This document shows, one piece after another, positions 1-58,605 of a DNA stretch of 64,000 nucleotides. The notes beneath the pieces were generated by a model that saw only the letters and a list, made by a program, of their open reading frames with translations, was not told the origin of the DNA and made no database searches. Source of the stretch: Olsenella profusa DSM 13989 (lineage in GTDB: Bacteria; Actinomycetota; Coriobacteriia; Coriobacteriales; Atopobiaceae). Made by a program: the position numbers and the translations under genes. Each line of letters starts with the position of its first letter. Positions within the stretch are counted from its first letter, which is position 1. The DNA is taken from NCBI RefSeq assembly GCF_030811115.1, contig NZ_JAUSQK010000001.1, forward strand, positions 930,001-994,000, read 5' to 3'.

Positions 1-3000
1 GGAAGCAGAAGCAGGACGCCGCGAACTCCGCCATCGAAAAGCTCGACTCCGACCACAGCCAGGCCGCGAGCTCCGACGAGGGATGCTCTGACGAGCAGGA
101 GGCCTCCTACAAGTCGGACAGGGCCGAGCAGGAGCAGGCCGCCAGCGAGGCGGGCGCGATGCTCTCGCGCATCTACCAGTACTGCGAGCAGACGAACGGC
201 ATCTATGGGGACGTCGACCTCTCCGACCTCATCGACACGGCCCAGAAAGCCATGGGAGCGATCTCGGCCGCAGGCTGGAACTCCGAGACCAACAGCTGGG
301 GCGAGCTCGATGACAGTACGTTTGCCGACCTTGACAAGAAGACGGCCAAGGTTGCCGAGACCATCGCCAACAGCGCGTCCGATGGGCAGCAGGGCAGCGA
401 CGAGAACACGGAGTATGGCGGCGACCCCGTGAGCCTTGTCAACGGGAACTTCACGTGGGCGAGAGGGTACTTCCTCTACGGTGGCAGGCCCGCGCTTACG
501 CTCACCTACAACTCCCTTAGACGCGAGGCAGGCGCGCTGGGGCCCGGCTGGCGCCACAGCCTGGAGGCGTCACTCGAGGATGGGCCGGACGGCATCACCG
601 TCACCTGGGGGGATGGCTCGACCGAGAGGTTCGTCGCCATCTCCGAGGGGGTCTGGTCCGAGTCGCGCGGCCGGGACGAGTACATGTCCCGCTTCGGCAA
701 GGGGTGGAGGCTCGAGGACCGTCGTGGGGAGCAGTGGTACTTCGACGAGCATGGTGGGCTCGGTTCCATCGTCGACGCGTTCGGGAGGGCGACGACGCTC
801 GAGCGAGATCCTGAGGGGAGGGTCCGTCGGGCCATCGTGCGCGAGCTGACCCTGTCGTTCTCGTATGGTGACGAAGGCAGGCTCGAGTCCGTCTCCGATG
901 ACACGGGACGCTCCGTCTCCCTCTCCTACGACGCGGGCGGCATGCTTGCGGGCATCGTGGACGAGACCGGAGCAGCGATCGCCTTCTCCAACGAGGGGGA
1001 TCTGCTGGCGGAGCTCCGCGACGAGGAGGGACGCCTCATCTGCTCGAACGCCTATGACCAGGACGGGCGGGTGCTCTCCCAGCTGCTGCCGGGGGGCGAG
1101 GTCTCCTACCGCTGGGACGGGGACACCGTCGAGGTCACCGAGCGCGACGGCTCGGTGACGCTCCATCGCAGCGACTCCGCGGGACGCAGTACGCTCAGCG
1201 TCAACGAGCTCGGCCTCGCAAGGGCGCGCTCCTACGACGCGCGCGACTACCTGACGGGGCTGAGGGCGCCCAGCGGGGCGTCCTGGTCGTGGTCGCGCGA
1301 CCGCTCCGGCAGGGCGACCTCCCTGCGCGACCCCACCGGCCGCGAGGCCCGTACGATGTGGGACGACGGCATGCTTCCGAGGAGCGTCGAGGTGGACGGG
1401 AACGTGACCCTCCGCTCCACGTCCGATGAACGGGGACTGCCCGTGCAGGTCTCCGATGGCTCGGGATCGACGATGGGGCTGCGGTGGGACGCCATGCGCA
1501 GGCTCGTGCGCGTCACGTTCGCCGACGGCTCGTCGCAGTCGTGGGACTACGCCGGCTCCTCGAGGCTGCCCGCGCGCTTCGTGGACGAAGGGGGGCACGT
1601 CACCCGATACGAGTGGGATGCCTGGGGCAACCTGGCGTCCGTGACGAGACCCAATGGTTCGACGGAGCGCTGGCGGTGGGACGCCCGCTGCCGTCTCATG
1701 GCGCACGAACCTCTGGGCGGGGGGACCGAGACGTGGGAGCGCGACGCCTCCGGCAGGGCGGTCGCGCACACGGACGCCCTCGGGCAGAGGACGTGCGCGC
1801 GACGCGACGCCGCGGGCAGGGTCAGTTCCGAGACGGAACCGGACGGCTCCGAGGTGCGGTGGGAGTACGGCCCCCGCGGGGAGCTCCTCTCCCTCACCTG
1901 GCCGGACGGGGGTAAGACGAGCTTCGGCTACGACGCGGCGATGCGCCTCGCCGCCCTCACGCTGCCAAGTGGCGAGAGGACGGGGCTGAGCCTCGATGCT
2001 GACGACAACATCGTCGGCATCGAGGGGCCTGCCGGCACGAACGCCTACACATGGGACGCGGCGGGACGACTCACCTCGGCCCAGGGGCCCCGCGATGGGG
2101 AGGAGCGCTCGTATGACGCGCAGGGCAGGCTCTCCGAGAGGAGGTTCGCGGACGGCTCGAGCGTCCGGTACGAGTACGACGCGGCAGGGCGCCAGGCGCG
2201 CCTCATCGTGAATGATGACTACACTATCGACTTTGCGTACGACGGGCGCGGCAGGCTCGTCTCCCGGGAGGACTCGCTCGGGCGCGGGTACCGCTGGCGG
2301 CTGGACGCGGCGGGCAACAGGGTGTCCGAGGACGGCATCGACGGCGAGCTGCGCTTCTCCTATGGGACGGACGGCACGTTCTCGGCCGTCACGGACGCGG
2401 CGGGCAACAGGACGGCGAGCGTCCTGGACCCCGCGGGCGAGGCCGCCGAGGTGCTGAGGCCCGGCAATGCGGGCCCCGCCAGGTACGTGCGCGACTCCCT
2501 CGGGCGCATCACGTCGATCGAGGACCCCACGGGGCGCGTGTCCCGCTTCGAGTACGACGCGGCGGGCAACGTCTGTCGCAGGGACGACGGCGGCGTCGTG
2601 CACGAGTGGGCGTACGACGCCATGGGGCGCGCGGTGGCCGACCGTGGCCCCGCCGGGGAGCACCGCTACGCCTACGATGGGGCGGGCAACCTCGTGGAGG
2701 CCGCCGACGGGAGCGGCACCTCGCGCATCGAGGTCGATGCCGCCGGGCGGCCCACGGCCGTGAGGCACCCGGACGGTGTGCACCTCGGGTGGGCGTACGA
2801 TGAGCGCGGCAACAGGGCCTTGCTCGACGTGGATGGCACGGAGATTCGCTACCACCACGACGGCCTCGGTCGCCTCGCGCGCGTGGAGGCCGGCGGCGGC
2901 TGGGTGGAGCTCGACTACGACGAGCGCGGCAACCTGTCGCGCCGCCGCTGGTCGGACGGCTCGTCGCAGTCCATCGCGCTCGACCCGGCGGGCCGCCTGG

Positions 3001-4562
3001 CGTCGATGGAGCTGGTGGATGCCGCCGGGCACCGCGACTCCCTGTCGTACGAGTGGGACGGCCGCGACGACCTGGTGGCGCTCGTCGCCGAGCGTTGGGG
3101 TGCCCCCGGGCAGTCCGGCCGCTTCGAGCTCTCCTACGACGCCGCAGGTCGTCTCACGTCCGTCTCGCGCGACGGCGAGGAGCTGGAGCGCTACGCCTAC
3201 GACGGCCGCGGCAACAGGGTCTCCTCGCCCGGCGCCTCGTATGTCTACGACGCCGCCGACAGGCTCGTGGAGCTGCGCGGCGAGGGCGGGACGACGTGCT
3301 ACGCCTACGACGGGGCGGGCTGCCTCGCGTCCGTCGAGGGGCCGGCCGGCGCGTCCCTGCTCTCGCTGGATGATGCGGGCGCGCCGCTCTCGACGGAGTG
3401 GGCCGGCGGCGGCCGCCGCCGGCACCTGCGCGACCCGCTCGGCCGCCCGCGCGGCGTCGAAGGGCTCTCGGCGGACCTGCACGACCCGTCGGTGCCCCTC
3501 CACTCGCTCGTGCGCAGGCGCACGGGGGCGGGGGAGCGCGTCTACCTGCAGACGCCGGCCGGCTGCGTCGGCGCCGTCGACCCCGCCGGCGGCGCCCTCG
3601 AGCCGGTCATGTGCGACCTGCTCGGCCAGGCGCTGCGCGTCTGCCGCGGCGGGGAGTTCGGCGCCGCGCTGGGCTCGATGCCCTTCGGCGTGCCGTTGGC
3701 GTCCGACCCGCTCGTGCCCTTCGGCGCGTTCGGCTACGTGGCCGACCCGGCCACGGGCCTGCTCGCCTCGCCCACGCGCCTCTACGACCCCGGCCTCGGG
3801 CGCTTCCTGTCGCCCGACCCCGTGGGAGGAGCGCCCGACAGGCCCCACACGCTCAACCGCTACGCCTACTCCGCGTCCAACCCCACGCGCTACTTTGACC
3901 CAACGGGAGGGTTCATAAACCTGGCGGCTGGTGCTGCCTTTGCTGTAGGTGGAGCCTTGGTGAACGGAGCAATCGAGCTTGGTAGAGAAACGCTGATCGA
4001 GCATAAGTCCCCGGACTGGGGGAAGGTGGGAGGAAAGGCGCTGGAGGGAGTTGCCATTGGTGGTGTCGCCGGCCTCACCTGCGGGGCGTCCCTCGGCGTG
4101 AGTGTCGCCGCAAACTTTGGGGCAGGGGTCTTGACCGATGTTGCTGACCAGGCCTTGGTCGAGGGCACCGCGCAGGGGCGCTCACCTTACGAGATTACTG
4201 CACATGCCTTAATAGCAGGTGGTACGAATGCCCTTTCTAACGGGCCGGCTCTTCCTGTTGACAAGTGGCTCTCGGCTCCTGTGAGTGAGACGTTGACTAA
4301 CAAGATTGTAGGCGAGGAAGTCTTCAAGGATATCGACAAGGATCTTGTGATGAGCGCGACGACACGGGGGCAGTGGCGCGACCTCCTTGGCTATGGCACC
4401 CTAGAAGAGGCCCTCTCATTCATCTCGTCTGGGGGGATGTCATTAGCGGCAGACCAGACTGGCATGACGTCCAAACTTGCCAATGGGCTAGCCGTCCTCT
4501 CCAATTGGCTTGAGCGCTATTCGAGGTACGCAGTAGTGGCGTGCGCCCAAGGGGGTCGGTAG
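1..4562 (+). CDS. RHS/YD-repeat polymorphic toxin, 5' end outside window
   Basis: The frame is open from base 3 to the stop at 4560-4562 (1519 residues seen), so the ATG at 159 is internal and the true start lies left of the window. The order is: an acidic, coiled-coil-like helical segment to about base 410, resembling the middle of the LXG-type protein at 61278; a DUF6531-like entry (YGGDPVSLVNGNF) near 415; dozens of YD repeats (YDAAGR, YDGRGN types); the closing core (GRFLSPDPVGG near 3800, YFDPTGG near 3893); then a tail of about 220 residues. RHS shells are known to encapsulate a C-terminal toxin. This tail is lower in GC, has Gly/Ala-rich helices and ends ACAQGGR; I do not recognise its activity. 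The stop lies one base before the GTG of the putative immunity gene at 4564. The last 70 residues recur at 46560. Confidence 0.93.
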   Translation, partial: KQKQDAANSAIEKLDSDHSQAASSDEGCSDEQEASYKSDRAEQEQAASEAGAMLSRIYQYCEQTNGIYGDVDLSDLIDTAQKAMGAISAAGWNSETNSWGELDDSTFADLDKKTAKVAETIANSASDGQQGSDENTEYGGDPVSLVNGNFTWARGYFLYGGRPALTLTYNSLRREAGALGPGWRHSLEASLEDGPDGITVTWGDGSTERFVAISEGVWSESRGRDEYMSRFGKGWRLEDRRGEQWYFDEHGGLGSIVDAFGRATTLERDPEGRVRRAIVRELTLSFSYGDEGRLESVSDDTGRSVSLSYDAGGMLAGIVDETGAAIAFSNEGDLLAELRDEEGRLICSNAYDQDGRVLSQLLPGGEVSYRWDGDTVEVTERDGSVTLHRSDSAGRSTLSVNELGLARARSYDARDYLTGLRAPSGASWSWSRDRSGRATSLRDPTGREARTMWDDGMLPRSVEVDGNVTLRSTSDERGLPVQVSDGSGSTMGLRWDAMRRLVRVTFADGSSQSWDYAGSSRLPARFVDEGGHVTRYEWDAWGNLASVTRPNGSTERWRWDARCRLMAHEPLGGGTETWERDASGRAVAHTDALGQRTCARRDAAGRVSSETEPDGSEVRWEYGPRGELLSLTWPDGGKTSFGYDAAMRLAALTLPSGERTGLSLDADDNIVGIEGPAGTNAYTWDAAGRLTSAQGPRDGEERSYDAQGRLSERRFADGSSVRYEYDAAGRQARLIVNDDYTIDFAYDGRGRLVSREDSLGRGYRWRLDAAGNRVSEDGIDGELRFSYGTDGTFSAVTDAAGNRTASVLDPAGEAAEVLRPGNAGPARYVRDSLGRITSIEDPTGRVSRFEYDAAGNVCRRDDGGVVHEWAYDAMGRAVADRGPAGEHRYAYDGAGNLVEAADGSGTSRIEVDAAGRPTAVRHPDGVHLGWAYDERGNRALLDVDGTEIRYHHDGLGRLARVEAGGGWVELDYDERGNLSRRRWSDGSSQSIALDPAGRLASMELVDAAGHRDSLSYEWDGRDDLVALVAERWGAPGQSGRFELSYDAAGRLTSVSRDGEELERYAYDGRGNRVSSPGASYVYDAADRLVELRGEGGTTCYAYDGAGCLASVEGPAGASLLSLDDAGAPLSTEWAGGGRRRHLRDPLGRPRGVEGLSADLHDPSVPLHSLVRRRTGAGERVYLQTPAGCVGAVDPAGGALEPVMCDLLGQALRVCRGGEFGAALGSMPFGVPLASDPLVPFGAFGYVADPATGLLASPTRLYDPGLGRFLSPDPVGGAPDRPHTLNRYAYSASNPTRYFDPTGGFINLAAGAAFAVGGALVNGAIELGRETLIEHKSPDWGKVGGKALEGVAIGGVAGLTCGASLGVSVAANFGAGVLTDVADQALVEGTAQGRSPYEITAHALIAGGTNALSNGPALPVDKWLSAPVSETLTNKIVGEEVFKDIDKDLVMSATTRGQWRDLLGYGTLEEALSFISSGGMSLAADQTGMTSKLANGLAVLSNWLERYSRYAVVACAQGGR

Positions 4563-5330
4563 CGTGGACTACCCAATCCTCTCGCGCGTCGTTGGAGCGC
4601 TGGTTACCGTTGCGCTAATGGTTCTGCTCTTTCGTCGCATGGGGAAGCAGTCCCAGGAGAGGCGCGCCGCTTTGCCGGTGGAGGGTGCCGTTTCCTGCGG
4701 CCTTCCTCCTGCGCTCTGGAGGTTCTTCCTCGTGGCCGCCCTCATCCTGCTTGCCCTCGTCGGCATGCTCGGCTTCATCGGGCCCGCGCTCACAGGTGGT
4801 GACCCCCTTGACCAGCTGCCCGCCAAGCTCGGCTTCCTCGCGGCGGCCGCCCTCTCCGCCCTCGCGAGCGCGCACTACCGCACGTGGCGCCTCACGGCCG
4901 ACGGGGAGGGCCTGCACCTCAGGCGCCTGCTGCTGCCGAGCCTCGACGTCCCCTGGGGAAGGCTCGACTCGTTCGCGTTCTCGAACGACGGCCAGGGGGC
5001 CTACATCGTCTCTGACGGGAGAAAACGTGCCTCGTTCCCCGTGGTGTACCTGGCGTATGGAGATGGCTCGGCTCGACTTGGCGAGGTGGTGCGCTCTCAT
5101 GGGGTCCCTACGGAATTGGAGCGCGACCTGCCGGAGGGGGTGCCGGGCCCGCACGGGCTCGAGCGTCGGCAGTCCTTCGACGACCGGATGAGGGCGCTTC
5201 CCGTGTGGGAGCAGCTCCTCCTCGCGCTGGCGTTCATCCTCGTGTTCTCTGTTGTATTCTTTCTGATCGTCGTGCTGCTCATGGGGTAGGCGCTATCGGC
5301 GAGGACATCTCCGTGGTCTCCGGGACGGAG
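4352..5330 (+). repeat. Segmental duplication, partner at 46560-47537
   Basis: From GAGCGCGACGACACGGGGGC in the RHS tail through the whole immunity gene and about 40 bases beyond, the sequence matches 46560-47537 with only scattered differences. It duplicates a toxin tip together with its cognate membrane gene. Confidence 0.9.
4564..5289 (+). CDS. Membrane protein with PH-like domain, probable immunity to the upstream RHS tail
   Basis: 241 residues from a GTG one base after the RHS stop, so very likely translated by coupling. Hydrophobic segments lie at about 8-23, 52-75, 88-104 and 216-240. Between the last two is a soluble region opening YRTWRL and LLLPSLDVPW, which looks like a bacterial PH/YcxB-like fold. 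It is the reference member of a family found at 42580, 45476, 46772, 47815, 48816, 49609, 50815, 51695, 52409 and 54997, where intact RHS tails or their last residues precede most copies. A position directly after each toxin tail is typical of immunity genes, and a membrane location would suit a pore-forming or membrane-acting tip. Function is inferred from context only. The copy at 46772 is nearly identical. Confidence 0.85.
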   Translation: MDYPILSRVVGALVTVALMVLLFRRMGKQSQERRAALPVEGAVSCGLPPALWRFFLVAALILLALVGMLGFIGPALTGGDPLDQLPAKLGFLAAAALSALASAHYRTWRLTADGEGLHLRRLLLPSLDVPWGRLDSFAFSNDGQGAYIVSDGRKRASFPVVYLAYGDGSARLGEVVRSHGVPTELERDLPEGVPGPHGLERRQSFDDRMRALPVWEQLLLALAFILVFSVVFFLIVVLLMG

Positions 5331-6120: not shown

Positions 6121-6210
6121 CCGCGCAGCTCGGGCGGAGGCGAGAGGCCCACGCCGGCGGAGCAGGAACCAGCCCAGGGAACGGTCACCACGAAGCGCAA
6201 GGAGACGTGC

Positions 6211-10941: not shown

Positions 10942-11028
10942 GCTGTGCCCTGCCATCGTGTTGGAATGCCGGACGGCCTCAGGACGTATCCTCTGTGTCG
11001 TGTGCGCCGTGCCTGAGAGGAGGATCCC

Positions 11029-11814: not shown

Positions 11815-11820
11815 GGGCGG
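11074..11820 (+). repeat. Segmental duplication, partner at 57780-58530
   Basis: About 745 bases are almost identical at 57780-58530, 46 kb away. The only clear internal difference I saw is near the 3' end (GTGATAGACGG versus GTCGTGGACGG). The N-terminal dozen codons differ, so the duplicated block starts inside the signal peptide region. Confidence 0.88.
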
Positions 11821-11976
11821 CCCCGGGGCGCGTGCGGTGGCGGGCGGGGTGCGCATCTGATTGCACCCGAGGGGGCGAGGGCGGCGCGGAAGGCCACCGG
11901 GTGTACACTTCGCGCGGCACCCCCGGGCTATACCGGGGCGGCCAGCTCGGCCGCCCTCGCGACGTGGGAGGCGTGT

Positions 11977-40628: not shown

Positions 40629-41738
40629 AGGCGCGGCGCGTCCGGCCCGACGGCAAAGCTCCCGGCAAGCAGGAGCCCGACGGGGTCCGCGAGCTGTGCA
40701 GGCGCGTGCGCGAGCCCGGGCGGGGGAACGGGTCCCTGAGAAAGGCGAGCGCCCTCTTCGCCGCCAGCCAGGCAAGGTGACAAGCGCCGCCCGATGGGGG
40801 CGGGGAGGGCGAATCATCCCGTGACGACGACGGCCCGCGTGCCGGAGGCGTCTCGCTCGGGCTCCTGCAGCTGGCCCGCGGAGGGCGGGCCGGACGGCCC
40901 GTGGGCCGATCTGAGGGAGGCCGCCGGGCGCGTCTGGCTGGAGTCGGGCCGCACCCTCGGCGCCGGATCCGTGCTGGCGCTTCTGCCCGGGGGCTCGCCG
41001 GCGCCACGCCCTGCCGCGTGCGCAAGTGCGTGAGGGGGCCGGGCATACGCGGCATGGCCCCCAGCTCGGAGAAGAGGGCCGCCATTCCCGACGAGGGCGC
41101 CCCGGCCGGGCCGGGCCTGGCCAAGCGCGACCTCACGGGCCCGGTCCCCGCCTGAAAGCTCGTCGGCGGCATCACCTACCCCAGGGCGCGGGAGGGGCGG
41201 CTTCGTCTCGCCGCCGCGGCCGGCCTGTGCACGCGCATGGTCGCCGGCTGGGCGATCTCGGGGCGCATGGCCGCGGGCATCGTCGTCGGGGCGCTCGAGC
41301 GTGCCCGGCGGCGCGGCCGCGCCGCCGGCAGCGCCATACTCCATTCCGACCGCGGCTCGCAGCACGCCTCCGGGCTGTTGGCCCGCCGGGCCGACGAGCA
41401 CGAGGCCAGGCTCTCCGTCGGGCGCACCGGCGGCTGCCGCGACGGCGCGGCGGCGGAGCCCCCTCTCCGGCACGCTCAAGGACGAGATGCACGGCCTGCG
41501 TAGATGGGCCGCCCGAGACGGGGCGCGCGACACGGCCATCGGCTGCATCGAGCGCCTCCACGACCGAAGCCGCCCGCACTCGACGATCGGCTACGGGGTT
41601 CCCGCCGAAGCGGTGGGGGCGCTCTTCGAGCGGACGAGGCAAACATCCGGAAGCGCCGTCTCGGAGCCGGCGTGCATGGGGAGGATGGCCGCCTGGCGAG
41701 GGAGCGGCGTTTTGTGTCCGAAATCTTGGCACAGCTCA
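40418..41738 (+). mobile_element. IS3-family element, 1321 bp, terminal repeats intact, genes decayed
   Basis: Left end TGAGCTGT...CGGACACGGATCGCCGC (40418) and right end, read inward, TGAGCTGT...CGGACACAAAACGCCGC (from 41738) form an imperfect terminal inverted repeat of about 39 bases beginning with TG, as in IS3. No target-site duplication: the left flank is a small T7SS gene (CTC), the right flank an RHS gene (ATG). So the two sides were joined by deletion or recombination at the element. Confidence 0.85.
40497..41690 (+). pseudogene. IS3 transposase (orfA/orfB) with several frameshifts
   Basis: orfA starts at ATG 40497 after AGGAGGCAGC: MANAGTCTDECRSERADHVM, SSGETATGAA, then in another frame LGLHHETPQRRVKARR and REPGRGNGSLRKASALFAAS, the typical leucine-zipper end. 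orfB fragments follow: WADLREAAGRVWLESGRT, VRGPGIRGMAPSSEK, LCTRMVAGWAISGRMAAGIV, ILHSDRGSQHASGLLARRAD, then in another frame LKDEMHGLRR and DRSRPHSTIGYGVPAEAVGA. The SDRGSQ motif and the H-S-T-I-G-Y end define the rve core. At least four frame breaks; inactive. Confidence 0.87.
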
Positions 41739-42030
41739 ATGTGCGACCTGCTGGGCCAGGCGCTGCGCGTCTGCCGCGGGGGCGCGTTCGGCGCGGCGCT
41801 GGGATCGACGCCCTTCGGCGCGCCGCTGGCGTCCGACCCGCTCGTGCCCCTCGGCGCGTTCGGCTACGTGGCCGACCCGGCCACGGGCCTGCTCGCCTCG
41901 CCGACGAGGCTCTACGACCCCGCTCTCGGGCGCTTCCTCTCCCCGGACCCCGTGGGGGGCGCGCCCGACAGGCCCCACACCCTCAACCGCTACGCCTACG
42001 CCGCCTCCAACCCCACGCGCTACTGCGACC
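41739..42030 (+). repeat. RHS core-end duplication, partner at 44619-44910
   Basis: About 290 bases coding the last RHS repeats are almost identical at 44619-44910 and similar at 3610-3900. This is the homology block that would allow tails to be exchanged between RHS genes. Confidence 0.88.
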
Positions 42031-42578
42031 CCACGGGCGGGTTTATAAACCTGCTGGCTGGTGGGGTTGGCGCTGTCGTTAGTGGATTTTTTGGGGCTGG
42101 CATCGAAATGGGCAAGGAGATGTTGATCGAGGGGAAGTCCTTCGACCAGCTGGACGGCAAGAAGATTGCCGCAAAGGGCGTGGAGAACGCTGTCATCGGA
42201 GGGGTCGCCGGCCTCACCTGCGGGGCGTCCCTCGGTGCGAGTATTGCCGCAAACGCTGGGGTGGGGGTCTTGACCGACCTTGCTGACCAGACCTTGGTCG
42301 AGGGAACCGCGCGGTACAACCCTCCAGAGGCGGTGGTCGGGCACGCGCTGGTCTATGGCGCGTGGAACGGCCTCTCCGGGGCGACGCAGTACACGACGAT
42401 TGGCGCGCTGGCCAACCATGTCATCGCGAAGGAGGGGGTCGGGCTTGGCCTGGCGAAGCAGCTCGGGCTGTTCTCCCTGTACCAGCTGAACTCGCAGCCG
42501 CTGATCGGCGGTATGATGATGCTCTGGGAAAGGGTCACGGGCTACAGGACGAGCGCCTGCGCCGGGGAGGAGGTCTGA
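41739..42578 (+). CDS. Orphan RHS C-terminal piece with toxin tail
   Basis: 279 residues from ATG 41739, which directly abuts the IS3 right end. The first 100 residues are the end of an RHS core (LGQALRVCRGGAFGAALGS, FGYVADPATGLLASPTRLYD, GRFLSPDPVGG, RYCDPTGG), nearly identical in DNA to 44619-44905 and close to 3611-3900. The tail of about 180 residues (FINLLAGGVGAVVSGFFGAG, VAGLTCGASLGASIAANAG, LSGATQYTTIGALANHVIAK) is related to the tail at 3900-4562 in its first half and ends RTSACAGEEV. No promoter or ribosome site is evident, so it is probably a silent cassette, expressible only after recombination with a full RHS gene. Immunity gene follows at 42580. Confidence 0.85.
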   Translation: MCDLLGQALRVCRGGAFGAALGSTPFGAPLASDPLVPLGAFGYVADPATGLLASPTRLYDPALGRFLSPDPVGGAPDRPHTLNRYAYAASNPTRYCDPTGGFINLLAGGVGAVVSGFFGAGIEMGKEMLIEGKSFDQLDGKKIAAKGVENAVIGGVAGLTCGASLGASIAANAGVGVLTDLADQTLVEGTARYNPPEAVVGHALVYGAWNGLSGATQYTTIGALANHVIAKEGVGLGLAKQLGLFSLYQLNSQPLIGGMMMLWERVTGYRTSACAGEEV

Positions 42579-42579
42579 C

Positions 42580-43299
42580 GTGGATCTCGGCATGCTCCTG
42601 CGCCTCGTGCCGACACTCGCCGCGGCGGCCGTGGTGTCGCTCCTCGCGCGCCGCGCCGCGCGCGAGCGCGAGGCGGCGGAGGGCCGCCCCGCAGCCCCCG
42701 GCGGCGAGCTCTCCTACGGCCTGCCGCCTGTCTTCTGGAGGGTCATGCTGATCGGCCTGGGGTTCCTCGCCTTCCCGCTGATGATCGAGCTGGGGAGCCT
42801 CGCCGCCGGGAAGCCGCCCTTCAGGCAGTGGGAGGCCGACCTCATCTTTGTCGTCGCGGCCGCCCTCTCCGTCCTCGCGAGCGCGCACTACCGCACGTGG
42901 CGCCTCACGGCCGACGCGGGGGGCCTGCGTCTCAGGCGCCTCGTGCTGCCCAGCCTCGACGTCCCCTGGGAGGAGCTCGACGCGCTCGTCATCTCCAACA
43001 ATGGCCAGACGCTCTACGTGATGGCGGGCGGAAGGAGGCTCGCCGGCTTCTCGATGGTGTGCGTCTCCCACGGCGACGCCCTGTCGGCGCTCTACGGGGC
43101 CGCGCGCTCCCACGGCGCGCTCGTGTCGGCGGAGCGCGACCTGCCCGAGGGGGTGCCGGGCCCCCACGGGGCGCGGCGCCAGACCCTCGACGACCGGGTG
43201 GGGGCGCTCCCCGTGTGGGAGCAGCTCCTCCTCGCGCTGGCGTTCATCGCCGCGTTCTCCCTCGCGATGTACCTGCTGCTCGTGCTGCTCATGGGGTAG
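42580..43299 (+). CDS. Membrane PH-like immunity candidate, paralogue of 4564
   Basis: 239 residues; GTG 42580 lies one base after the RHS tail stop, preceded by GGGGAGGAGG. Same layout as 4564: first anchor (LLRLVPTLAAAAVVSLLARR), two spans near 50-75 and 88-103, the shared YRTWRLTADAGGLRLRRLVL and SLDVPWEELD block, and a last anchor ending YLLLVLLMG. The middle of the soluble part (ALVISNNGQTLYVMAGG) differs from 4564, which is where specificity for its tail may lie. Confidence 0.82.
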   Translation: MDLGMLLRLVPTLAAAAVVSLLARRAAREREAAEGRPAAPGGELSYGLPPVFWRVMLIGLGFLAFPLMIELGSLAAGKPPFRQWEADLIFVVAAALSVLASAHYRTWRLTADAGGLRLRRLVLPSLDVPWEELDALVISNNGQTLYVMAGGRRLAGFSMVCVSHGDALSALYGAARSHGALVSAERDLPEGVPGPHGARRQTLDDRVGALPVWEQLLLALAFIAAFSLAMYLLLVLLMG

Positions 43300-43665: not shown

Positions 43666-43694
43666 CGATGGCGCTGGCGCGGGGGAGGGGCGAC

Positions 43695-44441
43695 ATGGGG
43701 GAGTTCATGAGGAGGCACCGGCGCGACGCGCTGGTCGCCCTGCTCGTTCTCGCCGTGGCGCTCGGGGCCGGGGCCGCGCTCGACCGGGCCGGCACGGCCG
43801 GGGGCGGCGACGGCGGGCAGGCCCAGGTGCAGGCCCAGCCCGCCGATGAGGGCACCACCGGCGGCGACCCCGGCCGGGACGCCGCGCCCGGCGCGGGGGG
43901 CGAGGAGGCCGCCATCGTCCCGGAGTCGGAGCGCGTCGCACCGGAGGGCACGAGGCGCCTGAGGCTCCCGGGGATGATGACGGGCGGCAGCGTCCCCGAT
44001 GCCCAGAGGTACGCCCGCGACCTCCTCGACGCCTCGCCGAGGGCCTGCGAGGCGGCCTACGCCAACGAGGACGGCACGGTGGACGTCTGGCAGACTCGGG
44101 AGCAGTCGGAGGAGAACGTCCGCAGGGTCTCCGAGGAGCTGGGCTCGACCGAGGAGGAGCTCGCCGGGAAGGGCATCGGCCTGGAGGTGTCGGGCGACCG
44201 CCGCTCAATCACCCTCACGGTCGGCGCCGGCGCGAGCAGGGAGGACCTCGCCTACGGGATCTCCCGCGCGGTTCCCGGGGTGGCGTACCTGCAGGTGGAG
44301 GAGACCGGCGGCGAGGGCTTCGCGCTCTCCGTGGACGTGGCGGACGGGACCACGGGCGAGGTGATGGGGCACTTCGACCAGGACACGTACCAGGGCTGGA
44401 GCATGGGGCCCGCCTGGGTCGGGGGAGGCGGGGCGTCGTGA
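43695..44441 (+). CDS. Signal-anchored exported protein, family 1 of 3
   Basis: 248 residues from ATG 43695 (GGGGGAGGGG 5 bases upstream, promoter-like module before it). MGEFMRRHRRDALVALLVLA followed by VALGAGAALDRAG is a signal anchor. An acidic, Gly/Pro-rich linker follows (QAQVQAQPADEGTTGG), with G6 at 43895-43900. The conserved domain begins IVPESERVAPEGTRRLRLPG and has an Asp/Glu-rich pattern with CEAAYANEDGTVDVWQTREQ and a beta-rich end (EETGGEGFALSVDVADG). Paralogues at 55747 and 63038. Each is followed by a GTGAGC start overlapping its stop. The family is not recognised; an extracellular accessory of the toxin system is one guess. Confidence 0.78.
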   Translation: MGEFMRRHRRDALVALLVLAVALGAGAALDRAGTAGGGDGGQAQVQAQPADEGTTGGDPGRDAAPGAGGEEAAIVPESERVAPEGTRRLRLPGMMTGGSVPDAQRYARDLLDASPRACEAAYANEDGTVDVWQTREQSEENVRRVSEELGSTEEELAGKGIGLEVSGDRRSITLTVGAGASREDLAYGISRAVPGVAYLQVEETGGEGFALSVDVADGTTGEVMGHFDQDTYQGWSMGPAWVGGGGAS

Positions 44442-45473
44442 GCCGGCTGGCCGGCCCGCGCGGCGTGGGGGGCCTCTCGGAGGACCTGCACGACCCGTCG
44501 GCGCCCATCCACTCGCTCGTGCGCAGGCGCACGGCGGCGGGGGGAGCGCGTCTACCTGCAGACGCCGGCGGGCTGCGTCGGCGCCGTCGACCCGGCGACG
44601 GGGGAGCTCGAGCCCGTCATGTGCGACCAGCTGGGCCAGGCGCTGCGCGTCTGCCGCGGCGGGGAGTTCGGCGCCGCGCTGGGATCGACGCCCTTCGGCG
44701 CGCCGCTGGCGTCCGACCCGCTCGTGCCCCTCGGCGCGTTCGGCTACGTGGCCGACCCGGCCACGGGCCTGCTCGCCTCGCCGACGAGGCTCTACGACCC
44801 CGCTCTCGGGCGCTTCCTCTCCCCGGACCCCGTGGGGGGCGCGCCCGACAGGCCCCACACCCTCAACCGCTACGCCTACGCCGCCTCCAACCCCACGCGC
44901 TACTTTGACCCGACGGGAGGGGAGGTGGTACTTGCCGCTATTGGTGCTATTGCTGCAGGGGCGGCGTTTGCCGCCGCCGAGGCGGCCAACGAGGCTATCA
45001 GCGGCCAGCCGCTAGATCCTGCAACGATAGGTGTTGCTGCTGGCAAGGGCGCCGTGTGTGGCGCTTTGGCGGGAGCCACCAACGGGCTTTCCCTTGCACC
45101 ACTCCTACTCGCAAACTTTGGAGTCGGTGCTGGTGCCTCTGCCTTGGGCACAGTCGTAGACGATGGAATTCATGGTCGTAGCACGGACTATGGTGCGCTT
45201 GGTCTCAACGCCCTTAAAGATGGCGCGCTGAACGCGGTAACCATGACTGTGGGTGGCCTGGCCTGGCAGTCTGCCACGAAGGTGGCCGGGGCGGAGGCTG
45301 GCAAGGACCTGCTCGGGAGGAACGTCGCGTTCGCCGCGCAGCAGTTCCACGAGAACCTCGTGAAGGGCGTCGTGACGGACCCGAGGGCCCTCGCGAAGAT
45401 GTACGAGAGCGTCTCCGAGGCGCTCGCCGGCTTCATGGGGGGCGGCTGCGCCCCCGAGGGGGAGGGGGAGTGA
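44438..45473 (+). pseudogene. RHS C-terminal piece, head frameshifted, tail intact
   Basis: GTG 44438 overlaps the previous stop and starts as the small downstream partner does (MSRLAG), then fuses into RHS text: GPRGVGGLSEDLHDPSAPIH, SLVRRRTAAGG. At a G6 tract (44539-44544; G5 in the RHS gene at 3530) the frame is lost; reading resumes as YLQTPAGCVGAVDP and, from ATG 44619, as an open 284-residue ORF to 45473. The core end is followed by an AT-richer tail (VVLAAIGAIAAGAAFAAAEA, LNALKDGALNAVTMTVGGLA, AAQQFHENLVKGVV, ALAKMYESVSEALAGF) ending GCAPEGEGE. The end of this tail is copied at 47650-47812 and echoed at 48690-48813. Immunity gene at 45476. Confidence 0.82.
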
Positions 45474-45475
45474 CG

Positions 45476-46180
45476 ATGGCGTGGGCAGTCGGCGCGTTCC
45501 TGGCGGTCTCGGCCGTGGGCCTCGTCTGGCGCCTCGCGTCCCGCCGCGACCGGGGCGCCGCCGTCGTCGCGCCGGGCGCCCTGGAGTGGCGCATGTCGCG
45601 GGTGTGGCCGGCCTTCGTGGCCGCCTGCGGTGTGGCGTTCCTCGTGCCCGCGGCCTGGGTCCTTAGCCGCGCTCGTCCCGAGGAGGCCTGGGTGCTCTGG
45701 GGGTTCCTCGCCTTCGCCGCGTTCGCCTTCCTCGTGGCCGCCCACATCGCCTCCTGGCGCGTCCTCGTGGACGGCGAGGGCGTCCACGCGAGGAGGTGGC
45801 TCTTCGGCCCGCGCGACGTCGCCTGGGGCGACGTCGACGCCCTGAGCGTCGTCATGGCGCAGCGTATGATGGCGGGCAGCGTGGACTCGGTCGCCGTCAT
45901 GTCCGGCGGCAGGAAGGCCATGAGGATAAGCGGGCTCGTCCTCGGCGGCCCGGCCTCCCAGGGGCGCTTCCTCGACGAGGCCCGCCGCCGCGGCATCCCC
46001 GTGGCGCACCCCTCCGAGCTGCCCGCGGGCCTCACCCCCTGGGGGCCGCTGCACCGGCGCTACGCCGCGCTGCCCGGGTGGAAGCAGAACGTGGTCGCCA
46101 TCGCCATCACCGCCGCCTCGCTCGGCGCGTTCTTCCTCCTGCTGTACGTCATAGGCACCGCCGTCGGGCAGATAAGGTAG
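45476..46180 (+). CDS. Membrane PH-like immunity candidate
   Basis: 234 residues from ATG 45476 (GGAGGGGGAG just before; GTG 45470 also in frame), two bases after the tail stop. Spans near 3-17, 42-62 and 70-88; soluble block opens IASWRVLVDGEGVHARRWLF and GPRDVAWGDVDALSVVMAQR, then VAVMSGGRKAM; last span at 205-228 (VVAIAITAASLGAFFLLLYV), end GQIR. It forms a subfamily with 47815 and 52409 (same RRWLFGPRDVAW text), linked to tails ending in CAPEG/CVPEG. Confidence 0.82.
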   Translation: MAWAVGAFLAVSAVGLVWRLASRRDRGAAVVAPGALEWRMSRVWPAFVAACGVAFLVPAAWVLSRARPEEAWVLWGFLAFAAFAFLVAAHIASWRVLVDGEGVHARRWLFGPRDVAWGDVDALSVVMAQRMMAGSVDSVAVMSGGRKAMRISGLVLGGPASQGRFLDEARRRGIPVAHPSELPAGLTPWGPLHRRYAALPGWKQNVVAIAITAASLGAFFLLLYVIGTAVGQIR

Positions 46181-46340
46181 GGGAGGGGGGCTGACGTGGA
46201 TCTCGGCATGCTGCCGCGCCTCGTGCCGACGCTCACCGCGGCAGCAGGCGCTCGTGGTCGTACCCGCCACGCTCCTGGGGACGGCGGCCATCTTCGGCCT
46301 TATGATGCTGGTGTGCTACCTGGCCGTGGGGCACCTGTAG
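45737..46340 (+). repeat. 604-bp duplication, partner at 48076-48679
   Basis: The second half of the immunity gene and the hybrid scrap behind it are repeated at 48076-48679 (constant offset 2339) with only a few differences. Its first 260 bases also occur at 52667-52926. Confidence 0.9.
46196..46339 (+). pseudogene. Hybrid scrap: head of one immunity gene joined to tail of another
   Basis: GTG 46196 starts MDLGMLPRLVPTLTAAA, the first 17 residues of the 42580 type. The next bases, in another frame, read ALVVVPATLLGTAAIFGLMM then LVCYLAVGHL, the last span of the 48816 type. So about 200 internal residues were removed at a GCGGCAGCAGG junction. An identical scrap is at 48535. Confidence 0.72.
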
Positions 46341-46458
46341 ATGCGGTGGCGAGGACCCTGCCTGTCCCTGCGGCCGGTGGTCCTGTCGGTGGGGTTCTCG
46401 GCCTTGCGAAATAAGCGCGGGCATATATGCGAGGCGTGAGGAGATCAGGAGGGACGGG

Positions 46459-46770
46459 ATGAGGGACTTCATGAGGAGGCGCCTGTGGGACGCGCTCGTC
46501 GTCCTAGCCGCCGTCGCCGTGGCGCTCGGGGTGCGCGCCGCGCTCGCCCCGAGCGGGGCGAGCGCGACGACACGGGGGCAGTGGGGCGACCTCCTTGGCT
46601 ATGACGCCCTAGAGGAGGCCCTCTCGTTCATCTCGTCTGGGGGGATGTCATTGGCGGCGGACCAGGCTGGCATGACGTCCAAGCTTGCCAATGGGCTAGC
46701 CGTCCTCTCCGATTGGCTTGAGCGCTATTCGAGGTACGCAGTAGTGGCGTGCGCCCAAGGGGGTCGGTAG
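46459..46770 (+). CDS. Chimera: signal anchor of the 43695 family fused to an RHS tail tip
   Basis: 103 residues; GGAGGGACGGG stands before the ATG. Residues 1-33 (RDFMRRRLWDALVVLAAVAV, ALGVRAALA) are the signal anchor of the 43695/55747/63038 family. From residue 34 the text is that of the RHS tail at 4352-4562: SATTRGQWGDLLGYDALEEA, SFISSGGMSLAADQAGMTSK, ending ACAQGGR. The frame is intact across the junction and the matching immunity gene follows one base later at 46772. It may express a membrane-anchored toxin tip independent of RHS, or be a chance fusion. Confidence 0.75.
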   Translation: MRDFMRRRLWDALVVLAAVAVALGVRAALAPSGASATTRGQWGDLLGYDALEEALSFISSGGMSLAADQAGMTSKLANGLAVLSDWLERYSRYAVVACAQGGR

Positions 46771-46771
46771 C

Positions 46772-47497
46772 GTGGACTACCCGATCCTCTCGCGCGTCGT
46801 GGGGGCGCTGGTTACCGTTGCGCTAATGGTTCTGCTCTTTCGTCGCATGGGGAAGCAGTCCCAGGAGAGGCGCGCCGCTTTGCCGGTGGAGGGTGCCGTT
46901 TCCTGCGGCCTTCCTCCTGCGCTCTGGAGGTTCTTCCTCGTGGCCGCCCTCATCCTGCTTGCCCTCGTCGGCATGCTCGGCTTCGCCGCGCCCGCGCTCA
47001 CAGGTGGTGACCCCCTTGGCCAGCTGCCCGCCAAGCTCGGCTTCCTCGCGGCGGCCGCCCTCTGCGCGCTCCTTGGCGCGCACTACCGCACGTGGCGGCT
47101 CGTCGCTGACGGCGAGGGCCTGCACCTGAGGCGCCTGCTGCTGCCGAGCCTCGACGTCCCCTGGGGAAGGCTCGACTCGTTCGCGTTCTCGAACGACGGC
47201 CAGGGGGCCTACATCGTCTCTGACGGGAGAAAACGTGCCTCGTTCCCCGTGGTGTGCCTGGCGTATGGAGGTGACTCGGCTCGACTTGGCGAGGTGGTGC
47301 GCTCTCATGGGGTCCCTACGGAGCTGGAGCGCGACCTGCCGGAGGGGGTGCCGGGCCCGCACGGGCTCGAGCGTCGGCAGTCCTTCGACGACCGGATGAG
47401 GGCGCTTCCCGTGTGGGAGCAGCTCCTCCTCGCGCTGGCGTTCATCCTCGTGTTCTCTGCCGTGTTCCTTCTGCTCGTCGTGCTGCTCATGGGGTAG
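46772..47497 (+). CDS. Membrane PH-like immunity candidate, near-identical to 4564
   Basis: 241 residues from GTG 46772, one base after the chimeric tip gene. It differs from 4564-5289 by a few residues only (for example GFAAPAL for GFIGPAL, LCALLGAHYRTWRLVADGE for LSALASAHYRTWRLTADGE). It presumably protects against the same tip. The pairing tip-immunity is thus kept even when the RHS shell is gone. Confidence 0.84.
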   Translation: MDYPILSRVVGALVTVALMVLLFRRMGKQSQERRAALPVEGAVSCGLPPALWRFFLVAALILLALVGMLGFAAPALTGGDPLGQLPAKLGFLAAAALCALLGAHYRTWRLVADGEGLHLRRLLLPSLDVPWGRLDSFAFSNDGQGAYIVSDGRKRASFPVVCLAYGGDSARLGEVVRSHGVPTELERDLPEGVPGPHGLERRQSFDDRMRALPVWEQLLLALAFILVFSAVFLLLVVLLMG

Positions 47498-47605
47498 GGC
47501 GCCGTCGGCGGGGACGTCCCCGTGGCCTCCGGGGTGGGGGGCGGGCATGGAGATGGTGGGGCATAGGCTCTCAGTCCAGGGAAGGTAGGTTGGTACTGTG
47601 CTACC

Positions 47606-47812
47606 TTGGGTGGCGGTCGGGAGCCGGCGGCGGAGGCTGGCGAGGGCCCGCCCGGGAGGGACGTCGCGTTCGCCGCGCAGCAGTTCCATGAGAACCTCGT
47701 GAAGGGCGTTGTGACGGATCCGAGGGCCCTTGCAAAAATGTACGGAAACCTTTCTAGGTCGCTTGCTGGCCTCAGGAAGGGCGGCTGCGTTCCCGAGGGG
47801 CAGGGGGAGTGA
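47606..47812 (+). pseudogene. Scrap of an RHS tail tip
   Basis: About 68 codons end at 47812: after a non-homologous start, GRDVAFAAQQFHENLVKGVV, TDPRALAKMYGNLSRSLAGL, and GCVPEGQGE. This is the last third of the tail at 45300-45473 with a divergent final helix. No ribosome site. The upstream 100 bases (47498-47605) show only echoes of the gap after 5289. Immunity gene follows at 47815. Confidence 0.7.
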
Positions 47813-47814
47813 CG

Positions 47815-48519
47815 ATGCTCTGGGCTGTTGGCGTGCTTCTGGCGTTGTCTGCCGTGGGTTTCGTCTGGCGCATCGCGTCCCGCCATGACCGGGGCGCCGA
47901 GTCGCCCGACCCGGGCGTGCTGGAGTGGCGCATGTCCCGCGTGTGGCCGGCCTTTGTCGTCGCCTGCGGCCTCGTCTTCCTGGGCTTCGCGGTGTGGGCG
48001 GGCCTCGCGTCCCCCGAGTCCGACAGGTGGACGGCTTGGGGGTTCCTCGGCTTCACCGCGTTCGCCTTCCTCGCCGCCGCCCACATCGCCTCCTGGCGCG
48101 TCCTCGTGGACGGCGGGGGCGTCCACGCGAGGAGGTGGCTCTTCGGCCCCCGCGACGTCGCCTGGGGCGACGTCGACGCCCTGAGCGTCGTCATGGCGCA
48201 GCGTATGATGGCGGGCAGCGTGGACTCGGTCGCCGTCATGTCCGGCGGCAGGAAGGCCATGAGGATAAGCGGGCTCGTCCTCGGCGGCCCGGCCTCCCAG
48301 GGGCGCTTCCTCGACGAGGCCCGCCGCCGCGGCATCCCCGTGGCGCACCCCTCCGAGCTGCCCGCGGGCCTCACCCCCTGGGGGCCGCTGCACCGGCGCT
48401 ACGCCGCGCTGCCCGGGTGGAAGCAGAACGTGGTCGCCATCGCCATCACCGCCGCCTCGCTCGGCGCGTTCTTCCTCCTGCTGTACGTCATAGGCACCGC
48501 CGTCGGGCAGATAAGGTAG
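47815..48519 (+). CDS. Membrane PH-like immunity candidate
   Basis: 234 residues from ATG 47815 (GGGGCAGGGGGAG upstream), two bases after the tail scrap. The first 85 residues are a divergent relative of 45476 (LALSAVGFVWRIASRHDRGA, GLASPESDRWTAWGFLGFTA); from residue 88 on it is virtually identical to it. The split between a variable membrane half and a constant soluble half shows gene conversion within the family. Confidence 0.82.
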   Translation: MLWAVGVLLALSAVGFVWRIASRHDRGAESPDPGVLEWRMSRVWPAFVVACGLVFLGFAVWAGLASPESDRWTAWGFLGFTAFAFLAAAHIASWRVLVDGGGVHARRWLFGPRDVAWGDVDALSVVMAQRMMAGSVDSVAVMSGGRKAMRISGLVLGGPASQGRFLDEARRRGIPVAHPSELPAGLTPWGPLHRRYAALPGWKQNVVAIAITAASLGAFFLLLYVIGTAVGQIR

Positions 48520-48534
48520 GGGAGGGGGGCTGAC

Positions 48535-48813
48535 GTGGATCTCGGCATGCTGCCGCGCCTCGTGCCGACGCTCACCGCGGCAGCAGGCGCTCGTGGTCGT
48601 ACCCGCCACGCTCCTGGGGACGGCGGCCATCTTCGGCCTTATGATGCTGGTGTGCTACCTGGCCGTGGGGCACCTGTAGGGGCCCGTGGCGTCGTGAAGG
48701 GGACCGACCCCGTGCTCGACCCGGGGAGGCGGGCCGAGATGTACGGGAAGATCATGGGTGCGGTGGACCGCTTCGCGGGCCGCCAGTGCGCCCAGGAAGG
48801 ACGGGGGGAGTAG
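48535..48813 (+). pseudogene. Hybrid scrap plus RHS tail tip
   Basis: Same MDLGMLPRLVPTLTAAA head and YLAVGHL end as at 46196, then after 48679 a tip fragment in frame with the head: RGVVKGTDPVLDPGRRAEMY, GKIMGAVDRFAGRQ, ending CAQEGRGE. The tip is a variant of VKGVVTDPRALAKMY at 45360. It precedes the immunity gene at 48816 by two bases. Confidence 0.68.
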
Positions 48814-54996: not shown

Positions 54997-55680
54997 ATGC
55001 AGTTCGTATCGACAGGGGTGGTGGTCGCCGTCCTGGCCCTCGTGGCGGTGCTGGCCCGTCGTGAGGGGGGCGAGCCCCCAGTGGATCCGGGCAGGCCCTC
55101 CTACAGGATGCCCCGGGCCTATCCGGCCGTGTTCCGCGTCTGTGCGGCGGGCCTCCTCCTCGGTGCGGCCTTCTGCGCCTACACCCTGTACAGGGGCAAC
55201 CCCACGGCGGCCGGCGCCCTGCCCATCATCCTCGGCGCCGCCGCGCTCTGCCTGCTCTTTGCCGCCTACTACTCCCGCTGGCGCCTGGAGGTCGATGCAG
55301 ATGGCGTCCACCTGAGGCGCATGCTGCTCCCCGACCGGGACGTGCCGTGGGGCTCCCTCGACGCCGTGGGCGTCGCCCCGAGCCACACCCTCGACGACTA
55401 CGACGTCATCACCCTCGTGTCGGGCGGCAGGAGGGCGCTCTCCGTCCAGAGGGGCAGCCTCGGCGGAGGGGCCTCCCCGGAGCTGCTGCTCGACGCGGCG
55501 CGCCGCCGGGGCGTGCCCGTCGCCTCGCCCCTGGAGCTGCCGCCGGGCCTCTCCCCCTGGGGCCCGGCCCGACGCTGGTACGAGGGCCTTCCCGGGTGGC
55601 GGCGGGGGCTGGCCACGCTGGCGTCCATCGTCGTGTTCTCCGCTGTGTTCCTTCTGCTCGTCGTGCTGCTCATGGGGTAG
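54997..55680 (+). CDS. Membrane PH-like immunity candidate
   Basis: 227 residues from ATG 54997 (AGGGAGCGTGAGGGAG upstream). Spans near 4-18, 45-62, 68-86 and 205-226; soluble block YYSRWRLEVDADGVHLRRML and LPDRDVPWGSLDAVGV. The last span and stop context (FLLLVVLLMG, then GGTAGGACGCG) match 46772. Not preceded by a tail; it is the last member of the array. Confidence 0.82.
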   Translation: MQFVSTGVVVAVLALVAVLARREGGEPPVDPGRPSYRMPRAYPAVFRVCAAGLLLGAAFCAYTLYRGNPTAAGALPIILGAAALCLLFAAYYSRWRLEVDADGVHLRRMLLPDRDVPWGSLDAVGVAPSHTLDDYDVITLVSGGRRALSVQRGSLGGGASPELLLDAARRRGVPVASPLELPPGLSPWGPARRWYEGLPGWRRGLATLASIVVFSAVFLLLVVLLMG

Positions 55681-55714: not shown

Positions 55715-55746
55715 CGATGGCGCCGGCGCGGGGGGAGGGGCGTGGC

Positions 55747-56488
55747 ATGGGGGAGTTCATGAGGAGGCACCGGCGGGACGCCCTGGTCGCCCTGGTCGCC
55801 CTCGCCGTGGCGCTCGGGGCCGGGGCCGCGCTCGACCGGGCCGGCACGGCCGGCGACGGCGGACAGGCCCAGGTGCAGGCCCAGCCCGCCGATGAGGGCA
55901 CCACCGGCGGCGACCCCGGTCGGGACGCCGCGCCCGGCGCGGGGGGGCGAGGAGGCCGCCATCGTCCCGGAGTCGGAGCGCGTCGCGCCGGAGGGCACCG
56001 AGCGGGTGGTGTACCCGCGGCTCATCTCCGGGCCCGACGCCCGCGCGGCGGCGCGCTACGCCCGCGGCCTCCTCGACGCCTCCCCGAGGCCCTGCGAGGC
56101 GGCCTACGCCAACGAGGACGGCACGGTGGACGTCTGGCAGACGCGGGAGCAGGCCGAGGACGTCTCGCGCAGGGCGGGGGACGCGCTCGACTCGCTCCGC
56201 GCCGACCTCGCCTCGAAGGGGGTCTCGCTGGAGGTGTCGGGCGACCACCGCTCGGTCACCCTCACGGCGGGCGACGGCGCCACGGCGCAGGACCTCGCGC
56301 TTGGGATCGGGCCGGCCGTGAACGCGGCGTCGACCCTGCAGGTGGAGGAGACCGGCGGCGAGGGCTTCGCGCTCTCCGTGGACGTGGTGGACGGGGCCAC
56401 GGGCGAGGTGATGGGGCACGCGGACCAGGACACGTACCTGGGCTGGAGCGCGGACCTCTCGTGGCTCGGGGGAGGCGGGGCGTCGTGA
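55747..56488 (+). pseudogene. Signal-anchored exported protein, family 2 of 3, frameshifted in a G7 tract
   Basis: ATG 55747 starts MGEFMRRHRRDALVALVALA like 43695. The frame is lost at G7 (55941-55947), which is G6 in the intact relative at 43895; after it the domain continues in another frame: EEAAIVPESERVAPEGTERV, CEAAYANEDGTVDVWQTREQ, EETGGEGFALSVDVVDG, ending WLGGGGAS at 56488. One G fewer restores about 246 residues. Sequencing error or phase variation. Confidence 0.83.
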
Positions 56489-57672: not shown

Positions 57673-57739
57673 CCCCATGGGGCGCCCATATCAGGGGCGT
57701 ATTCCCCGCAGCTCATGCACCGAGTTCGAGGAGGGCCCC

Positions 57740-58525: not shown

Positions 58526-58605
58526 GGGCGGGGGCGGGGCGCGTGCGGTGGCGGACGGGGACGCGCCCCCTCGCCGTCGAGCGCGCGTGACGGTCGGGAG
58601 GACCG

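What the first reader, a model, noticed from the sequence alone, without database searches (positions are those of the whole stretch)
46459..46770. In-frame fusion of a signal anchor to a toxin tip, with cognate immunity gene attached
The first 33 residues come from the 43695/55747/63038 anchor family and the rest is the tip of the RHS tail at 4352. A ribosome site precedes it, the frame is open and the immunity gene starts one base later. It could be a way to place a toxin tip in the membrane without an RHS shell, or a chance product of recombination at GC-rich repeats.
Basis: partly seen in the sequence, partly recalled or inferred. Interest (0 to 1): 0.62.

Follow-up and report, generated by a model that had tools for sequence, protein, structure and literature searches.

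The report
Toxin-tip remnant fused to anchor start
In one Olsenella strain a DNA deletion has left the last 69 residues of a bacterial warfare toxin joined in frame to the start of a neighbouring membrane-protein gene, in front of an intact antidote gene; it is most likely a recombination scar in a fast-changing antidote island rather than a new kind of weapon.

Summary
ORF 46459-46770 (103 aa) joins about 33 residues of an anchor-protein family (43695/55747/63038) in frame to the last 69 residues of the RHS protein at 159-4562. A Shine-Dalgarno sequence lies 6 nt before the ATG, and the intact immunity gene 46772-47497 starts one base after the stop.

The best explanation is a recombination remnant in an RHS toxin/immunity island of an Olsenella profusa-like genome. 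The neighbouring locus still has the presumed ancestral order (anchor gene, orphan RHS tip, immunity gene), so one deletion from anchor codon ~33 into the tip accounts for everything. Supporting evidence:
- A second truncated tip remnant (47.6 kb) also precedes an immunity gene, without an anchor.
- O. profusa F0195 lacks the 8.3 kb segment holding the fusion. The junction is absent from F0195, Olsenella sp. Marseille-P4559, 150 relatives and the public collections searched.
- The fused piece lacks about 38 residues of the variable toxin region.
- The junction lies in the window's only perfect 12-bp hairpin.
- The tip differs from its parent by 5 synonymous and 5 nonsynonymous changes, indistinguishable from neutral.

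Nothing shows that the ORF is expressed or toxic. A tethered or secreted mini-toxin is not excluded (about 7%).

The parts
46447..46452 (+). Shine-Dalgarno AGGAGG, 6 nt before the ATG, at the start of the anchor-homologous stretch
   Evidence: sequence; anchor homology begins at 46448
46459..46770 (+). Fusion ORF, 103 aa: anchor N-terminus + RHS tip end
46459..46557 (+). Anchor-derived codons 1-33 (charged N-terminus + hydrophobic helix)
   Evidence: DNA homology 46448-46549 to 43684-43785 and 55734-55837; 46459-46549 to 63038-63128; LAP[SA]G shared with the G026 anchor; AF2 helix 2-29, single sequence, low confidence overall
46539..46566 (.). Perfect 12-bp inverted repeat with 4-nt loop (CGCGCTCGCCCC GAGC GGGGCGAGCGCG) spanning the junction
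   Evidence: only one in the 64 kb; 0-1 per 64 kb in first-order Markov simulations; no other copy in the genome within 2 mismatches; folds as a hairpin
46560..46770 (+). RHS tip remnant, last 69 codons of the RHS gene 159-4562 plus stop
   Evidence: 93% aa identity, part of a 974-bp block with 95.2% DNA identity to 4352-5324
46772..47497 (+). Predicted immunity gene (241 aa), intact; paralogue of 4564-5289
   Evidence: 94.6% aa identity; AF2 of an 8-member family alignment: four long helices plus a beta domain, pLDDT 73; PH/FERM-type folds are the best but weak matches, E about 0.1
159..4562 (+). Full-length RHS gene carrying the parent-type tip (CT residues 148-216 = fusion 35-103)
   Evidence: YD repeats and Rhs_assc_core
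4564..5289 (+). Predicted immunity gene of that RHS, paralogue of 46772-47497
43668..44441 (+). Intact anchor-family gene; with the next two genes it preserves the presumed ancestral order
44443..45473 (+). Orphan RHS C-terminal fragment downstream of the anchor gene
   Evidence: RHS core residues 1119-1251 at 92% plus its own tip; DNA 3434-3911 = 44443-44921
45470..46180 (+). Predicted immunity gene of the orphan RHS fragment
47623..47812 (+). Second tip remnant (end of the 44619 tip) without an anchor, directly before immunity gene 47809-48519
   Evidence: DNA 45285-46340 = 47623-48679, 90.6%

Best explanation
The ORF is a recombination remnant. In an earlier arrangement an anchor-family gene stood upstream of an orphan RHS fragment and its immunity gene, as still seen at 43668-46180. 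A deletion, probably aided by a short inverted complementarity (CGCGCTC in the anchor, GAGCGCG in the RHS tip), removed DNA from anchor codon ~33 to 69 codons before the RHS stop. By a 1-in-3 chance the frame stayed open. What selection keeps is most likely the immunity gene, protecting against RHS toxins of sister strains. The 103-aa product is probably translated at some level as a membrane-inserted or secreted small peptide without a complete toxin domain, and does little. Shown here: the two parents, the junction, the hairpin, the truncation, the second remnant, and the absence from other genomes. Inferred: the deletion as the route, hairpin involvement, immunity function, and lack of toxin activity.
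For: Both parents are identified in the same array and strand. The order anchor - orphan RHS - immunity is preserved next door at 43668-46180. In Marseille-P4559 an anchor gene (L066 5262-5933) lies directly upstream of an immunity gene (6040-6753). A second tip remnant ahead of an immunity gene, with no anchor and no convincing start, is at 47623-47812. The segment 43303-51605 is missing in O. profusa F0195, with 95% identical DNA adjoining on both sides (L048 1075|1077), and neither F0195 nor Marseille-P4559 holds the junction or the tip. No real match to the whole fusion in 150 relatives, genome contigs (12), viral contigs (65), phage records (64) or plasmids (66). The fusion has only CT residues 148-216. 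The hairpin is unique and lies on the junction. Tip changes are 5 syn / 5 nonsyn, P 0.11-0.19 under neutrality, and a stop-free frame is expected in about 80% of neutral histories with five substitutions. Literature: orphan rhs-CT/rhsI modules without translation starts (PMC3150448, PMC3967940) and immunity arrays left by displacement of effectors (PMC5361080).
Against: The frame is open and keeps a good Shine-Dalgarno sequence, a charged start and a hydrophobic helix, although the anchor part has diverged 19-22% from the three window anchors. dN/dS of the tip pair is 0.34, no higher than that of the immunity pair (0.43). The undeleted ancestor was not found in any genome. If the remnant is just debris, the retention of 69 tip codons is longer than needed to carry the immunity gene's ribosome site.
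Confidence: 0.85

Rival explanations
1. A functional membrane-anchored or Sec-exported mini-toxin: the anchor segment delivers the RHS tip to the membrane or cell surface without RHS shell or its usual secretion route, and the adjacent gene protects the producer.
For: Open frame, AGGAGG, charged N-terminus plus hydrophobic helix, a possible A-S-A signal-peptidase motif created at the junction (GASA|TT), immunity gene one base downstream. The immunity family is predicted to be membrane-embedded, which fits a membrane-acting toxin. Tip dN/dS below 1.
Against: About 38 residues of the variable toxin part are missing. One strain only. dN/dS is not distinguishable from neutral. No sigma-70-like promoter was found in front. 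A parallel remnant lacks any anchor. AF2 of the fusion is low confidence.
Confidence: 0.07
2. The ORF is a translated leader: the anchor's ribosome site and start now drive translation into the immunity gene by stop-start coupling, replacing the lost RHS reading frame. Selection maintains the open frame, not the peptide. (Compatible with a recombination origin.)
For: TAG-C-GTG spacing is preserved exactly as at the RHS parent (4562/4564). The frame is intact over 103 codons with a strong Shine-Dalgarno sequence. The next gene is intact.
Against: The immunity gene has its own AAGGGGG about 8 nt before its GTG. The second remnant at 47.6 kb has no convincing start, yet its immunity gene is intact. 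Several immunity genes in the array have no tip upstream.
Confidence: 0.2
3. Instead of a deletion, a copy of the tip-end plus immunity block (4352-5324) was inserted into an anchor gene.
For: The 974-bp block is nearly identical at the two sites and ends 36 bp past the immunity stop.
Against: No 3' part of an anchor gene follows the block. The order anchor - RHS orphan - immunity already exists next door, so a simple deletion suffices.
Confidence: 0.2

Closest known systems
Orphan rhs-CT/rhsI modules (silent cassettes) of Rhs loci (Poole et al. 2011, PMC3150448; Koskiniemi et al. 2014, PMC3967940)
   Same: RHS 3' fragment cut off from its delivery part, directly followed by its immunity gene, in an array downstream of a full-length rhs gene; tips and immunity genes exchange between strains.
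   Different: Here only the last 69 codons remain and they are fused in frame to the start of an unrelated membrane-protein gene; the published Salmonella orphan lacks a translation start and becomes expressed by fusion to the main rhs gene.
Orphan immunity gene arrays formed by successive effector displacement (Kirchberger et al. 2017, PMC5361080)
   Same: Strings of divergent immunity genes with remnants of displaced effectors, varying between close strains.
   Different: RHS proteins in an actinobacterium, not T6SS effectors in Vibrio; the immunity family is a predicted membrane protein with a beta domain.
T7SS immunity gene strings evolving by recombination between tandem paralogues (PMC9484751)
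   Same: Tandem non-identical immunity paralogues; one RHS here (6211-10941) has a weak WXG100-like N-terminus.
   Different: The families differ (EsaG and TsaI there), and no secretion system was examined here.

Membership tests
Orphan rhs-CT/rhsI module | 3' fragment of an rhs gene without the delivery part, homologous to the tip of a full-length RHS | tested here: met
   46560-46770 = last 69 codons of 159-4562
Orphan rhs-CT/rhsI module | Immunity gene immediately downstream | tested here: met
   46772-47497, one base after the stop, 94.6% identical to the gene behind the full RHS
Orphan rhs-CT/rhsI module | Complete toxin domain (whole variable CT) | tested here: not met
   only CT residues 148-216; the variable part starts near residue 110. 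Hence a remnant of such a module, not a full one
Orphan rhs-CT/rhsI module | Toxicity neutralised by the cognate immunity protein | not testable with these tools
   needs expression tests
Orphan immunity array by effector displacement | Several divergent immunity genes in tandem without full effectors, variable between close strains | tested here: met
   11 family members found in the genome, all in the window; the F0195 island differs
Membrane-tethered toxin (mini-effector) | Recurs in independent genomes as a conserved architecture | tested here: not met
Membrane-tethered toxin (mini-effector) | N-terminal signal sequence or anchor with upstream ribosome site | tested here: met
   sequence, homology to anchors, AF2 helix 2-29 in a low-confidence model; export not testable here

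The most novel reading that the evidence does not exclude
The fusion is a live, newly born effector: a membrane-tethered or Sec-exported toxin tip acting without RHS shell or specialised secretion, kept with its immunity gene.
Probability: 0.07. Interest if true: 0.65.

Novelty: new member of a known kind. Interest (0 to 1): 0.27.

Why it matters
It shows at base level how RHS toxin/immunity islands of Coriobacteriia turn over: tips are eroded while immunity genes persist, and the deletions can create expressed-looking chimeric ORFs. If the chimera proved functional, it would be an example of a toxin tip escaping its delivery shell, and of gene birth by deletion.

Tried and rejected
- Relatives of the fusion in 150 genomes: only matches at chance level (best foreign E 6e-4, 32% identity), apart from anchor N-termini such as G026.
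- Known toxin or domain families for the tip: none in Pfam, NCBIfam or PADLOC beyond marginal hits.
- Sigma-70 promoter or terminator near the ORF: none by consensus.
- The hairpin as a dispersed repeat or transposon end: no second copy in the genome within 2 mismatches, and at 3 mismatches only about control level.
- Inverted repeats at the other island breakpoints: none within 40 bp, so the hairpin is specific to this junction.
- AF2 of the fusion: pLDDT 58, not interpretable beyond the N-terminal helix.

Full report
OBSERVATION. The ORF at 46459-46770 is exactly as described: ATG, 103 codons, TAG, then one base, then the GTG of a 241-codon gene. AGGAGG lies 6 nt upstream of the ATG. Self-comparison of the window shows two homologous stretches that meet inside the ORF. 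One is 46448-46549, which matches the beginnings of the genes at 43695, 55747 and 63038 (78-81% DNA identity, no gaps except a 2-nt difference against the 55747 locus). The other is 46560-47533, which matches 4352-5324 (974 bp, 95.2%), that is, the last 69 codons of the RHS gene 159-4562, its immunity gene and 36 bp beyond. Protein comparison in the whole genome agrees: aa 1-36 at 50-56% to the three anchor loci, aa 35-103 at 93% to the RHS tail.

WHERE THE N-TERMINUS COMES FROM. It is not a copy of one of the three anchors in the window. Relatives elsewhere begin MRDLMGRHGPLALAALLAAAVAAGAWLALAPAGTGG (G026, same family) and MRDFVGRR... (Olsenella sp. Marseille-P4559, L066). The fusion starts MRDFMRRR...AALAPSGASA. 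So residues 1-33, including LAPSG, are anchor-derived, and the switch lies at 46550-46559. In Marseille-P4559 the anchor gene sits 107 bp upstream of an immunity gene of the same family, and in G026 it lies about 5 kb from an RHS gene on the same strand. The anchor gene is therefore a regular inhabitant of these islands. No Pfam or NCBIfam family was found for it.

WHAT THE TIP IS. The C-terminal region of the RHS protein is 216 residues. Residues 1-109 are shared (about 55%) with the C-terminal region of the orphan RHS at 41301-42578, and the rest is specific. The fusion holds residues 148-216. It therefore lacks the first third or so of the tip-specific part. No toxin family was recognised, so activity of any part of this tip is an inference from RHS biology (PMC3150448).

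THE ISLAND. The window carries eleven members of one immunity-like family, and the searched genome showed no others. AlphaFold2 on an eight-member alignment predicts four long helices and a beta domain (pLDDT 73). PH and FERM domains are the best structural matches, but they are weak (E about 0.1). Two duplications have the same anatomy: 4352-5324 / 46560-47533, and 45285-46340 / 47623-48679 (90.6%). Each comprises the end of a tip plus the following immunity gene. The second remnant, 47623-47812, has no anchor and no convincing start. The locus 43668-46180 shows the order intact anchor gene, orphan RHS fragment, immunity gene. A single deletion in such an arrangement gives the fusion.

OTHER STRAINS. 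A contig of Olsenella profusa F0195 (L048) matches both sides of the island at about 95-96% identity. In it, the equivalents of window 43303 and 51605 are adjacent (L048 1075 and 1077). The 8.3 kb with the fusion are therefore strain-variable. The rest of the F0195 genome and Marseille-P4559 contain anchor starts but neither the junction nor this tip. F0195's own full-length RHS (same core, 92%) carries a different tip followed by an immunity gene 87% identical to the tip-less immunity gene 54997-55680 of the window. This is the pattern expected if the island stores protection against sister strains, as shown experimentally for Serratia (PMC10539506). No match to the whole fusion was found in 150 relatives beyond chance or anchor starts, in genome contigs, viral contigs, phage records or plasmids. 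Only one genome per species is held in the genome collections, so a rare strain-level polymorphism could be missed.

THE JUNCTION. 46539-46566 reads CGCGCTCGCCCC-GAGC-GGGGCGAGCGCG: perfect 12-bp arms with a 4-nt loop. It is the only such structure (arms of at least 12, loop 3-10) in the 64 kb. Five first-order Markov simulations of the window gave 0, 1, 0, 1, 0. No second copy within 2 mismatches exists in the genome, and at 3 mismatches the count is near the control. Its coincidence with the joint is unlikely to be accidental, though this was noticed after the fact. The left arm is anchor-derived and the end of the right arm (GAGCGCG) is RHS-derived. The inverted complementarity of CGCGCTC and GAGCGCG may have brought the ends together, with later correction of a quasi-palindrome to a perfect one. 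This is inference; other breakpoints of the island have no such structure.

IS THE FRAME SELECTED? The tip pair differs by 10 substitutions, 5 synonymous and 5 not (dN/dS 0.34). The probability of at least 5 synonymous under neutrality is 0.11-0.19, and a stop-free frame after five random substitutions is expected in about 81-83% of cases. The immunity pair has dN/dS 0.43 with 30 changes. The data allow weak constraint but do not show it, and part of any constraint is due to the full-length RHS copy.

MECHANISM. Most likely the fusion is a scar whose neighbour, the immunity gene, is what matters. Its product may be made in small amounts and inserted in or exported through the membrane. A leader role in translating the immunity gene is possible but not required, since that gene has its own AAGGGGG. 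A functional tethered toxin is the least likely of the readings, but is cheap to test.

COMPARISON. The elements fit orphan rhs-CT/rhsI modules (PMC3150448, PMC3967940) and immunity arrays left by effector displacement (PMC5361080). What differs is the in-frame union with an unrelated membrane-anchor start. In Salmonella, recombination fuses an orphan tip to the main rhs gene and thereby arms it (PMC3967940). Here the partner is not an rhs gene and the tip is incomplete.

Noticed in passing
window 4562, 10941, 42578, 45473; L063 (F0195 RHS end near 2860, minus strand); L080 (G026): Otherwise different RHS tips all end in a short Cys-Ala motif just before the stop: VVACAQGGR, AAACAG, TSACAGEEV, GGGCAPEGEGE, RGGCA. 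No explanation; the residues after it coincide with the next gene's ribosome site in several cases.
   Followed up: partly
window 54997-55680 and L063 2146-2838 (minus strand): A tip-less immunity gene in the window is 87% identical to the immunity gene behind the full-length RHS of O. profusa F0195, whose tip differs: a natural test case for orphan immunity between strains.
   Followed up: partly
window 46539-46566: The only perfect 12-bp hairpin of the window lies exactly on the fusion junction.
   Followed up: partly
window 6211-10941: Second full-length RHS with a weak WXG100-like N-terminus (NCBIfam WXG100_ESAT6 E 2.7e-4, below its cut-off), suggesting type VII-type export.
   Followed up: no
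window 11017-11849 and 57728-58560: Two copies of a lipoprotein-like gene 97% identical over 833 bp, 47 kb apart.
   Followed up: no
window 46180-46340, 48519-48679, 42564-42629: Repeated fragments of immunity-gene starts follow immunity genes (e.g. 46300-46340 identical to 48639-48679), further recombination scars.
   Followed up: no
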